The notes under the pieces: generated by a model
Told to the model about the DNA's origin: nothing
Seen by the model: only the letters and a program-made list of their open reading frames with translations
The model's database searches: none
In this document: positions 6,009-10,368 of the stretch, piece after piece
Numbering within the stretch: position 1 is the first letter of the stretch
Layout of the letters: each line of letters opens with the position of its first letter
Translations under genes and position numbers: made by a program
From: Neopestalotiopsis rosae
Taxonomy: Eukaryota; Ascomycota; Sordariomycetes; Amphisphaeriales; Sporocadaceae
Assembly (NCBI GenBank): GCA_023078685.1
Contig: JALGAS010000003.1
Coordinates: 1,674,001-1,738,000, forward strand
DNA: 64,000 bases
Reading direction: 5' to 3'

Positions 6009-6703
6009 GGTATGCATTGCATCAGGCGTTCTGGAATTTTCATGATCATTGCAGCATATAAGGGAGTCATTGGGTATACGGACAAAGTCTCGGGGCAGTT
6101 TGGCTCGGGGGAGTAGCATTGCAAGGCGTTCAGGGGGCTGGCCGATTACTGGCCTGTTTGTTGCATTTTTCTCTGGCGTGGATTGTGTTTACTCGTTGGA
6201 TATAATGAGTCAAGCTCATTATTTTGTCACAAGAAGACTCACTTATATAATAGAATGGAATGAAACACTGCCACATTCTGGCATATCGAATCTAGCCCTT
6301 CTGTTGAGATTGAGACTGAGAATGGACTTGAATTATAATAATCTCGATTGACTTCAATTTGTATTTCGGTCTGTCTTTTAGAATATCTCAGATAAGCCCA
6401 ATGGTGAATGGATCTCAAATGTTTCACGGTAATAATAATAACATGATATGACATTGGAGTGGTTCGTATGGTTACGTGCTTTCTCTATCTAGCACAGGCC
6501 AAGGCTAGCTGGCAGACAGCTGTCAGCCTGTCTCTCGCCGTGCCCCTCCTCCCACTCCGAGTCGGGTCCCACTACCCACTGCAATCTGTGAGTCAAGCGC
6601 GGGTTGGGCAAGCTGTGACTCGACAAAATTCCTGCAGCAAAGCCAGACGCCAGCCAGTATAGCAGCAGAGCCCAGCCTGTATATTTGCTGCTTCGCCAGA
6701 TGA
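6009..6703. other. intergenic region between ppn1 and the ValRS gene
   Basis: Tandem 3'-to-5' spacer. AT-rich TATA-like stretches occur at ~6197 (gatataatg) and ~6243 (tatataatag). No gene is seen. Confidence 0.5.
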
Positions 6704-6823
6704 CCCGCACAGCTGTTTAGATTCTACCATCGCAACACCGCCAAGTTGTCTAGACCAATTCTCCGAGCACTCTGGGTGCGCAGGTCGCCATTCAGGACAA
6801 ATCTTCCCTTCACATACGCTGCA
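6704..6823 (+). other. Candidate near-cognate-initiated mitochondrial presequence of ValRS
   Basis: The ValRS frame stays open upstream of its ATG back to a TGA at 6701-6703. It contains no ATG, but has a CTG at 6713 and a TTG at 6746 with A at -3. From the TTG the 26 added residues include five Arg, hydrophobic residues, Ser and Thr, and no Asp or Glu, as in a matrix-targeting peptide. The whole 40-codon stretch is also free of acidic residues. Fungal ValRS and several other synthetases are known to supply both cytosol and mitochondria from one gene, sometimes from non-AUG starts. That it is translated here is inference. Confidence 0.55.
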
Positions 6824-9800
6824 ATGGCTACAAACAGTGGTCGTGGTAACCCAAGTACGTCTGTCCTGTCTCTACCATACATGTCGGGCCACCACCTTTA
6901 CCCCGCCATGATATTCTTGTGTCCTGTTCTTCTCAATGTGTTTACAACTGTTGCTGACCATTGTCTTCTTCAATTCACACAGTCGGTGCGACCGAGGGTC
7001 CAAGCAAGGTCGGCGAGGGTGCGCCCCCTCCGGTCTCCAAGGATGTCAAGGACGCCGTGACTGCTGGGCAGACGGACAGCACTGGTGTACATGCTGCTGG
7101 CCAGGACGCGACCACGGCCCCAGCTGAGACCAAGGTCAAGTCGGCAAAGGAGTGTATGTCCTGAATAGAAACCCAATTCAAGCGTCTAGATTGACATTGC
7201 CCAATACTGAACTTCATCGTAGTAGAGAGGGAGCGCAAGAAGGCCGAGAAGAACGCCAAATTTGCTGAGAAGCAAAAGGCCAAGGCCGAGGCACAGGCCC
7301 AGCAAGCTGCTAGCAAGCCGAAGAAGGAGAAGGCTCCGAAGCCCGTCGAGGAGCCGCTGCCCGAGTACGTCGAAGATACCCCGGTCGGCGAGAAGAAGCG
7401 ACTCAAGTCCCTCGACGATCCCCAATTCAAGGCCTACAACCCCGTCGCCGTCGAGAGCGCATGGTACGAGTGGTGGGAGAAGGAAGGCTTCTTCAAGCCT
7501 CAGTTCAAGGCCGATGGCACCGTCAAAGATGAAGGCCACTTCACAATCGTCATCCCCCCGCCCAACGTTACGGGTGCTCTGCACATGGGTCACGCCCTTG
7601 GCAACTCTCTCCAGGATACCATGATTCGATGGGCCCGTATGCACGGAAAGACCACTCTCTGGCTGCCCGGTTGTGATCACGCCGGTATTGCCACCCAATC
7701 CGTTGTCGAGAAGCGCCTGAAGAAGGTTGAGGGCAAGACTCGTCATGATCTCGGCAGAAAGGACTTCATTGACCTCGTTTGGAAGTGGAAGGATGAATAC
7801 CATGCTAAGATCAACAAGGCCCAGAGGAAAATGGGTGGCTCGACCGACTGGAGCAGAGAGGCCTTCACCATGGACGAGAACTTGTCAGCCGCCGTCGCCG
7901 AGACTTTCGTCAAGCTTCACGAGGAGGGTATCATCTACAGAGCCAATCGTCTGGTCAACTGGAGTACCGAGCTGACCACTGCTCTGTCTAACCTTGAGGT
8001 CATCAACAAGGAGCTGCCTGGCAGGACCTTGATTGAGGTTCCGGGCTACAAGAGCAAGATCGAGTTCGGTGTCATTGTCCACTTCAAGTATCCCATCGAA
8101 GGAACCGACGAGACTATCGAGGTTGCCACTACTCGTGTTGAGACCATGCTTGGAGATACTGGTATCGCAGTCCACCCCGACGATGAGAGATACAAGCACC
8201 TCGTTGGCAAGAACGCCGTCCACCCCTTCATTCCGGGCCGGCTCATGCCCATTGTTGCCGACACATATGTTGAGAAAGAGTTTGGTACCGGTGCTGTCAA
8301 GATTACGCCTGCTCACGACCCCAACGATTTCGCCCTTGGACAAAGACACAATCTCAAGTTCATCAACATTCTCACTGATAATGGTTTGATGAACGAGAAT
8401 GCTGGTCCTTACGAGGGCCAGAAGCGCTTCGATGTGAGATACTCCATCCAGGATGCTCTCAAGGAGAAGGGCTTGTATGTGGACAAGAAGGACAACGCCA
8501 TGACTGTGCCAATCTGTGAGCGATCAGGTGATGTTATTGAGCCTTTGCTCAAGCCGCAGTGGTGGATGAGGATGAAGGAGCTTGCCGAGCCCGCTATTGA
8601 GGTTGTGAGAAACGGCAGAATAAAGATCAAGCCCGAGACTGCCGAGAGAAGCTACTTCAGATGGATGGAGAACATCAACGATTGGTGTCTGTCCCGTCAG
8701 CTCTGGTGGGGCCACCAATGCCCTGTCTACTTTGCCCAGGTTGAGGGTGAGAAGAACGATGAGGCGAACGGCGAGATGTGGTTCAGTGGCCGAACAGAGG
8801 AGGAGGCACGTGCAAAGGCCGAGAAGAAGCTTGCAGGGAAGAAGTTCACATTGAAGAGGGATGAGGATGTGTTGGACACGTGGTTCAGCTCTGGTCTCTG
8901 GCCTTTCTCGACTCTCGGATGGCCCAACAAGACCCCGGACCTTACCAACTTGTATCCCACATCCGTGCTCGAGACTGGATGGGACATTCTGTTCTTCTGG
9001 ATTGCTAGAATGATCATGCTCGGCCTCAAGATGGTTGGTGACATTCCCTTCAAGGAGGTCTACTGCCACTCGCTTGTCCGTGACTCTGAGGGTCGCAAGA
9101 TGAGTAAATCTCTCGGAAACGTCATTGACCCTCTTGACGTTATTCGAGGTATCCCCTTGGACGGCCTCAACAAGAAGCTGTTGGAGGGTAACCTGAAGGA
9201 CAGTGAAGTCGAGAAGGCCACCAAATACCAGAAGACGGCCTTCCCTGACGGTATTCCTGACTGCGGTGCTGATGCTCTCCGCTTCTGCATGGTCAACTAT
9301 ACTACTGGTGGTGGTGATATCAACTTTGACATCAAGGTTATGCACGCATACCGCCGCTTCTGTAACAAGCTGTACCAGGCCACAAAGTACGTCCTGGGCA
9401 AGCTTAACGAGAACTACACGCCTCCAAGCTCGGGCAAGCTGACTGGCAAGGAATCGCTTGCTGAGCAGTGGATTCTCCACCAGATGAACCAGGCCGTTAA
9501 AGCTGTCAACCAGGCCGTGCCCGACCGAGAGTTCAACACTGCAACTACCACCATCTACACTTACTGGTACAACCATCTCTGTGATGTCTTCATTGAGAAC
9601 TCCAAGGCCATCATTCAGGACGGCGCAGAAGAGGAGAAACGTTCTGCTGTCAACACCTTGTACACGGCTCTGGACAATGGTCTCAAGCTGATGCACCCCT
9701 TCATGCCATTCCTTACTGAGGAACTATGGCAGCGACTTCCTCGACGACAGGGCGATGAGACTCGATCGATTATGATCGCCAAGTACCCCGTGTACGAGGC

Positions 9801-10368
9801 TGAATTGGACAACCCGGCCGCTGCTGCTGCTTACGAGCTTGTCCTCGGATCATCCAAGGGTATCCGTTCACTCATGGCTGAATACGCCCTCAAGGATGAG
9901 GCAAAGGGTAAGTTTGTTCTTCATTTGATGTGAGAGACTACAGCACTAACGAATCTTGCAGTCTTTGTTCAGACCTATGATGAGACCGCTCACAAGACCG
10001 CCGTTGAGCAGGTGCAGTCCATCAAGTCTCTCAGTGGAAAGGGCGTCACAAACATCGAGGTCCTATCTGGCTCTGAGGCCAGACCCGTCGGCTGTGTTGC
10101 TTATCCCGTCTCCAGCGCTGTCACTGTCTTCCTGCACGTGAAGGGTCGTGTCGATATTGATGGCGAGATTGACAAGGCCAACAAGAAGCTGCAAAAGACA
10201 AAGGCGGCGATCCAGAAGCAGGAGAAGCTTCTGAACGATACCGCCTATCAGCAAAAGGCGAGCGAGACCCTGCAAGAGCAGGACCGCAAGAAGCTCGCGG
10301 ATCTCCAGAGCGAGGCCAACGGCTTCGAGGGTACCATCAAGCAGTTTGAGGGTCTCAAGCTTGAGTAA
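6824..10368 (+). CDS. vas1: Valyl-tRNA synthetase (class I), cytosolic and probably mitochondrial
   Basis: Exons 6824-6854, 6983-7153, 7223-9907 and 9962-10368 join in frame to 1097 residues, close to yeast Vas1. The enzyme charges tRNA-Val with valine. The N-terminal ~120 residues are a low-complexity, Lys/Glu/Ala-rich extension typical of eukaryotic ValRS. The class I core has the HIGH-type motif HMGH at 188-191 after PPPNVTG, the editing domain in the middle, and KMSKS at 693-697. The anticodon-binding region follows, and a Lys/Glu/Gln-rich coiled coil (about residues 1025-1097) ends the protein, as in known ValRS. The ATG at 6824 is the first in frame and is followed by an intron after ten codons, which is common in fungal housekeeping genes. 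The open frame continues upstream without an ATG (see the separate entry). No second ValRS gene is visible in the window. Confidence 0.96.

What the first reader, a model, noticed from the sequence alone, without database searches (positions are those of the whole stretch)
6704..6826. Hidden mitochondrial presequence of ValRS read from a non-AUG start
The ValRS frame is open for 40 codons upstream of its ATG with no ATG and no acidic residue, and with many Arg. A TTG at 6746 has A at -3 and would add 26 residues with an amphipathic, Arg-rich character, exactly what a matrix-targeting signal looks like. One nuclear ValRS gene serving two compartments is established in fungi, and near-cognate starts are known for some yeast synthetases (for example a TTG start for glycyl-tRNA synthetase). 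Its use here is inference.
Basis: partly seen in the sequence, partly recalled or inferred. Interest (0 to 1): 0.75.

Follow-up and report, generated by a model that had tools for sequence, protein, structure and literature searches.

The report
Hidden mitochondrial tag on fungal ValRS
The fungal gene that makes the enzyme loading valine onto tRNA appears to carry, just before its normal start, a mitochondrial address tag with no standard start codon, so one gene probably serves both the cell body and the mitochondria; this is a known trick in fungi, but here it still needs experimental proof.

Summary
The ValRS frame is open for 40 codons (6704-6823) with no ATG, no Asp/Glu and 7 Arg + 1 Lys; 0.23% of dinucleotide shuffles do as well. 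In that frame, and not in the other two, it resembles the annotated N-terminal extension of ValRS in two Magnaporthales (SRPILRALWVRRSPF versus SRLLSRALLVRPSPF; 26 and 15 of 20,000 shuffles score as high). So it probably encodes a translated mitochondrial presequence. GlyRS, HisRS and CysRS of the same genome each have an in-frame AUG before an Arg-containing stretch; ValRS has none. The mtDNA carries tRNA-Val. TTG 6746 is plausible (A at -3) but unproven: CTG 6713 falls at the register of the Gaeumannomyces model's AUG, though in a poorly similar part, and gives the more amphipathic form. A second intact ValRS gene exists (C13:725195-722246) but has no presequence-like N-terminus. No fungal DNA from relatives turned up in the two collections scanned, so conservation of the start codon is untested. 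Near-cognate-started mitochondrial synthetases are known in fungi: new member of a known kind.

The parts
6704..6823 (+). Open, ATG-free in-frame extension upstream of the ValRS ATG (40 codons), candidate mitochondrial presequence
6749..6793 (+). Block SRPILRALWVRRSPF shared with the N-terminal extensions of Gaeumannomyces (P0040) and Pyricularia (P0047) ValRS
6713..6715 (+). In-frame CTG (gcacagCTGT, C at -3), candidate start, 37-residue extension; at the same distance from the shared block as the AUG of the Gaeumannomyces model, in a part with little similarity; Pyricularia has Ser there
6743..6748 (+).
6701..6703 (+). In-frame TGA that bounds the open frame
6700..6720 (+). AUG-started 6-codon uORF MTRTAV in another frame (cgccagATGA, C at -3)
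6680..6686 (+). TATATTT, TATA-like by eye; by inference transcription might start a few tens of bases downstream, in or just before the extension
   Evidence: sequence; no transcript data
6824..6854 (+). ValRS exon 1, cytosolic start [10 protein letters not shown] (gctgcaATGG, G at -3 and +4)
6983..7153 (+). ValRS exon 2
7223..9907 (+). ValRS exon 3 (catalytic region and anticodon-binding domain)
9962..10368 (+). ValRS exon 4, C-terminal part and stop
6468..6587 (+). Hypothetical upstream AUG exon (donor GTGAGT at 6588, acceptor ending 6712 or 6745); not favoured

Best explanation
The window's ValRS gene makes two proteins. By inference most ribosomes start at AUG 6824, which has G at -3 and +4, and make the cytosolic enzyme. 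A minority start at an in-frame near-cognate codon upstream, either the AAG-TTG pair at 6743-6748 or CTG 6713, and add a 26-37 residue basic, acid-free presequence that takes the enzyme into mitochondria, where it charges the mitochondrial tRNA-Val. Shown here: the open frame, its composition, its frame-specific similarity to extensions in two other fungi, the absence of an in-frame AUG in the contiguous frame, the mitochondrial tRNA-Val, and a second ValRS without a presequence-like N-terminus. Inferred: that the stretch is transcribed and translated, which codon starts it, and that the product is imported.
For: Open, acid-free, basic frame expected in 0.23% of shuffles. Local similarity to the Gaeumannomyces (score 42, 26 of 20,000 shuffles) and Pyricularia (41, 15 of 20,000) extensions; the window's two other frames score 13-21 against these two, stops counted as X. 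Gaeumannomyces is in Magnaporthales, and the closest named relative of the window's ValRS, Neoarthrinium, in Amphisphaeriales, so the frame has stayed readable across orders. Contig C7, which carries COX1, has tRNA-Val(tac). GlyRS, HisRS and CysRS in the same genome show AUG, a basic stretch, then a second in-frame AUG, so dual use of one gene looks usual among the three examined. The second ValRS has no presequence-like N-terminus. Fungal synthetases are reported to have swapped weak AUGs and near-cognates repeatedly (PMC7049704 section 20, read).
Against: No transcript, ribosome-profiling or proteomic data. No fungal DNA of relatives was found, so conservation of the codon itself is untested. 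The two similar extensions come from kin and count as one independent comparison; their starts are gene-model predictions, and a third annotated extension, in P0131, is not similar (1095 of 20,000 shuffles). The 26-residue TTG form is not unusually amphipathic, and the measure does not separate well: the cytosolic N-terminus of this ValRS scores 0.276, within the 0.250-0.294 of the AUG-started presequence candidates. A uORF AUG lies just upstream at 6700 if transcription starts before it. A second ValRS gene exists.
Confidence: 0.7

Rival explanations
1. The presequence is real but starts at an ordinary AUG in an upstream exon (for example ATG 6468, intron 6588-6712 or 6588-6745).
For: Four spliced models join an upstream AUG to the ValRS frame without a stop; two of them, from ATG 6468, have a donor (GTGAGT, score 4.0) as good as two of the gene's own three. 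The Pyricularia model has a long AUG-started stretch unlike the window before the shared block, which might be such an exon.
Against: No branch-point motif YTRAY within 60 nt of the acceptor in any of the four models, unlike the three known introns of the gene. 87 of 400 shuffled upstream regions give at least one model with a donor score of 4 or more.
Confidence: 0.15
2. The C13 ValRS, not the window gene, serves the mitochondria, and the extension is a leftover or chance.
For: A second intact ValRS of 964 aa, 909 bits against a cut-off of 612.1, exists; its sequence has HVGH and KMSKS (these signature motifs are recalled).
Against: Its first 40 residues hold 12 basic and 6 acidic residues; the 21 open codons before its ATG have no R or K and one Asp. 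It ends where the C-terminal arm of its relatives begins. Chance does not easily explain the frame-specific similarity of the window's extension.
Confidence: 0.1
3. The extension is untranslated leader whose open frame and resemblance are accidental.
For: Open, M-free stretches of 40 codons are common here (16.8% of shuffles); only one independent outside lineage carries the block.
Against: Composition met by 0.23% of shuffles and, separately, similarity reached by 26 and 15 of 20,000 shuffles that keep the composition, with the other frames negative.
Confidence: 0.05

Closest known systems
S. cerevisiae VAS1 (also HTS1, CRS1)
   Same: One nuclear ValRS gene gives a presequence form and a cytosolic form (stated in PMC9604717, passages seen, by alternative transcript starts).
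   Different: That the upstream start there is an AUG is recalled; here no in-frame AUG exists in the contiguous frame.
S. cerevisiae ALA1 and GRS1, non-AUG mitochondrial starts
   Same: Presequence form read from non-AUG codons ahead of an in-frame AUG (PMC4263661, passages seen; that the GRS1 codon is TTG is recalled).
   Different: Different enzymes and lineage; experimentally shown there, inferred here.
Cryptococcus ArgRS (AUU) and LeuRS (adjacent ACG, AUU) dual-localised forms
   Same: Near-cognate, for LeuRS tandem, start of a predicted presequence in a synthetase (PMC7049704 section 20).
   Different: Cryptococcus ValRS uses a weak AUG, not a near-cognate.
Neurospora crassa cyt-20/un-3 ValRS (recalled; no paper on it seen)
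   Same: Sordariomycete ValRS said to serve cytosol and mitochondria.
   Different: Recalled as using an upstream AUG; not checked here.
Neurospora cpc-1 and Ustilago PGD non-AUG extensions
   Same: Conserved in-frame extension of a fungal protein started at near-cognates (PMC5487733, passages; PMC7214817, abstract and outline).
   Different: Different proteins; PGD gains a peroxisomal signal, and no mitochondrial role appeared in the cpc-1 passages.

Membership tests
Dual-targeted aminoacyl-tRNA synthetase with alternative starts | In-frame extension upstream of the cytosolic start without stop | tested here: met
Dual-targeted aminoacyl-tRNA synthetase with alternative starts | Extension has matrix-targeting character (basic, acid-free, amphipathic) | tested here: inconclusive
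   Basic and acid-free: met. Amphipathic: raised for the form from CTG 6713 (144 of 5000 shuffles), not for the TTG form (2443 of 5000); the control, the cytosolic N-terminus, scores 0.276, like the AUG-started presequence candidates. No dedicated predictor was available.
Dual-targeted aminoacyl-tRNA synthetase with alternative starts | No separate mitochondrial enzyme for the same amino acid | tested here: inconclusive
   A second ValRS gene exists but has no presequence-like N-terminus. Only 4 of 14 first-look candidates were scored; of the six Anticodon_1 loci, two (C10:3560635, C16:803986) were not identified, and neither shows in the valS rows.
Dual-targeted aminoacyl-tRNA synthetase with alternative starts | Extension conserved as protein among relatives | tested here: inconclusive
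   Similar to the extensions of P0040 and P0047, not to that of P0131; these are the three extensions of 17 or more residues that one search's pattern found before a MATN-like start in 134 homologues (its matches in P0057 and P0105 are inside the protein). DNA of close relatives not found.
Near-cognate (non-AUG) start of the mitochondrial form | No in-frame AUG available for the long form | tested here: inconclusive
   None in the contiguous frame; four spliced AUG models possible but weak.
Near-cognate (non-AUG) start of the mitochondrial form | Near-cognate codon in good context, conserved in position | tested here: inconclusive
   TTG 6746 has A at -3; CTG 6713 has C at -3 but lies at the register of the Gaeumannomyces AUG. 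Codon conservation could not be tested.
Near-cognate (non-AUG) start of the mitochondrial form | Ribosomes or peptides at the extension and import into mitochondria | not testable with these tools
   No expression data held.

The most novel reading that the evidence does not exclude
Across much of the Sordariomycetes the mitochondrial ValRS is read from a near-cognate codon ahead of the cytosolic AUG, so the presequence is missing from most annotated ValRS proteins; in Gaeumannomyces an AUG replaced the near-cognate (or the reverse) at the position of CTG 6713, a natural swap that can be tested directly.
Probability: 0.4. Interest if true: 0.5.

Novelty: new member of a known kind. Interest (0 to 1): 0.4.

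Why it matters
It adds ValRS of a filamentous fungus to the synthetases that probably make their mitochondrial form from a non-AUG start, and suggests how an essential presequence can be absent from annotations: of 134 listed homologues, 107 begin at residue 1 with a MATN-like start, and only two carry an Arg-rich extension before such a start (a pattern count on the best 120 hits of each of two searches). Proteome and localisation studies built on such models would miss the mitochondrial enzyme.

Tried and rejected
A protein search restricted to residues 1-52 of the extended ValRS scored no hit at E <= 10 from 1 candidate. It is uninformative: it did not return P0002, which shares the [12 protein letters not shown] part of the region. 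Scans for ValRS DNA of relatives: viral contigs gave nothing; genome contigs gave 46 loci, all titled as bacteria, at 32-44% identity, so no fungal leader. RNA folding downstream of TTG 6746 and CTG 6713 shows no structure beyond shuffles (z 0.93 and 0.47), so no hairpin aid to a near-cognate start is proposed. Reading C13 as the mitochondrial enzyme was considered and set aside. AlaRS could not be compared because its genome search did not complete. A search for a Neurospora ValRS/un-3 paper found none; the Neurospora start-codon stringency paper is not held; passages of PMC10576190 on clock-controlled Neurospora synthetases say nothing on start codons.

Full report
What is there. The window lies in a 53.8 Mb fungal genome of 17 contigs. 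Its ValRS is closest to an unnamed protein P0002 (94-95%), Neoarthrinium moseri (88-89%) and Xylariales sp. PMI_506 (87-88%), so the organism probably lies near Amphisphaeriales. The gene has four exons and encodes 1097 aa from ATG 6824. Upstream the same frame is open for 40 codons back to TGA 6701, without ATG or acidic residue and with 7 Arg and 1 Lys.

Is it more than chance. Of 20,000 dinucleotide shuffles of 6461-6823, 26.5% leave the last 40 codons open, 16.8% also lack M, 3.2% also lack D/E and 0.23% also have at least 8 R+K; 0.25% of 18,252 positions in the window meet the same test. The openness alone is ordinary; the composition is not. The threshold of 8 was set after seeing the value.

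Is it protein. each list the best 120 of 7996 scored proteins, together 134 distinct homologues. By a text pattern, 107 of 134 begin at residue 1 with a start like MATN; many of the others are truncated or odd models. Two have an Arg-rich extension before such a start: Gaeumannomyces tritici P0040 (MNRLPTTTTVTTSRLLFRALLVRPPPKSCSRPFLLRRAT) and Pyricularia P0047 (...VTTSRLLSRALLVRPSPFIFRVAT). The window's extension aligns without gaps to 25 residues of the first and 15 of the second, SRPILRALWVRRSPF against SRLLSRALLVRPSPF. Of 20,000 shuffles of the window peptide, 26 and 15 score as high, and the other two reading frames score 13-21 against 42 and 41 (stops in those frames were read as X). A third annotated extension, of 17 residues in P0131, shows no similarity (1095 of 20,000). 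P0040 and P0047 are sisters in the tree, so this is one independent comparison, across subclasses of Sordariomycetes. The absence of the extension from most records says little by itself, since gene finders usually require ATG.

Where would it start. In-frame near-cognates are CTG 6713, AAG 6743, TTG 6746, ATT 6758, GTG 6776, AGG 6782 and AGG 6794; only TTG has A at -3. For TTG: its context, its tandem with AAG, and that the shared block begins right after it. Tandem near-cognates are reported for Cryptococcus LeuRS (PMC7049704) and Ustilago PGD (PMC7214817 abstract). For CTG 6713: counted back from the shared block, the M of the Gaeumannomyces model falls on it, 12 residues before the block. 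But the local alignment stops 8 residues short of it, only one residue (Arg at -10) agrees in that outer part, and Pyricularia has Ser at that place. The 37-residue form has a high helical moment (0.454; 144 of 5000 shuffles), the 26-residue form does not (0.251; 2443 of 5000). This measure is weak evidence: the AUG-started stretches of GlyRS, HisRS and CysRS score 0.250-0.294, the Gaeumannomyces extension 0.274, and the cytosolic N-terminus of the window's ValRS, a negative control, 0.276. Against CTG: C at -3 and an overlapping uORF at 6700-6720. I judge TTG and CTG about equally likely.

An AUG after all? Four spliced models join an upstream AUG to the frame; the two with a good donor run from ATG 6468 through GTGAGT at 6588 to acceptors ending at 6712 or 6745. 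None of the four has a YTRAY branch-point motif near its acceptor, and 87 of 400 shuffled leaders give such a model. This stays possible at about 0.15.

Is a mitochondrial ValRS needed from this gene. Contig C7 (50,891 bases) carries COX1 with in-frame TGA and, in the 20 kb scanned, 13 tRNA genes including tRNA-Val(tac) at C7:22014-22086. A family search for valS, which scored 4 of 14 candidates, finds two loci over its cut-off of 612.1 bits: the window gene (1019.6) and C13:722141-724786 (909). The C13 gene is intact, two exons, 964 aa, 59% identical to the window's ValRS. It ends at residue 1025 of P0002 in the alignment, just before the weak match of P0002 to the ValRS tRNA-binding arm at 1030-1084 (23.3 bits, under the cut-off of 25.9), and itself shows no arm at E <= 0.001. 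In a FastTree of 48 sequences (46 of the 134 homologues picked by hand, plus the two genes) it joins the Lineolata protein on a long branch (support 0.999), which may mean foreign origin or long-branch attraction. Its first 40 residues hold 12 basic and 6 acidic residues, and the open stretch before its ATG has no R or K. It does not look mitochondrial. So the genome has two ValRS genes, but only the window gene shows a presequence-like stretch. GlyRS and CysRS each have one locus over the cut-off; HisRS, split by introns, has one main locus whose pieces stay under the cut-off. All three read AUG, a basic stretch, then a second in-frame AUG. The stretch is acid-free throughout in CysRS (27 residues), up to the last residue in GlyRS (62) and over its first 77 of 90 residues in HisRS, which then has 7 acids. 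No splice models or predictors were applied to these. AlaRS could not be examined.

Known or new. Dual use of one synthetase gene and near-cognate starts for the mitochondrial form are established in fungi (PMC7049704 sections 20 and 21 read, other passages; PMC9604717 and PMC4263661 passages). The listings of paper searches show no title or abstract start describing a near-cognate ValRS presequence in a filamentous fungus; some searches listed 20 of 21, 15 of 95 and 8 of 24 papers, and the library is partial. Figure 7B and Table S5 of PMC7049704, which classify the Neurospora synthetases, were not visible to me. Verdict: a presequence supported by composition and by one cross-order comparison, with a probable near-cognate start; new member of a known kind.

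Noticed in passing
L013 (G000:C13:719500-728500), gene C13:725195-722246 minus strand: A second, intact, divergent ValRS (964 aa, 59% identical, ends before the C-terminal arm, no presequence-like N-terminus) that groups with Lineolata (a Dothideomycete, recalled) on a long branch; possible horizontal gain, or a spare or resistance copy.
   Followed up: partly
Proteins P0125-P0130, P0132, P0133, P0135: A ValRS clade mixes Corynascus, Cladorrhinum, Parathielavia and Naviculisporaceae with Neonectria, Paramyrothecium, Truncatella angustata, Trichoderma harzianum and T. chlorosporum, while another Trichoderma ValRS (P0041) sits elsewhere in the tree; suggests duplicated or transferred ValRS genes.
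   Followed up: no
window 6468-6662: An AUG ORF of 64 codons without acidic residues in the leader upstream of ValRS.
   Followed up: partly
G000 contigs C7 and C8: Two contigs carry COX1 matches of equal score with in-frame TGA codons, apparently two copies of the mitochondrial genome in the assembly.
   Followed up: no
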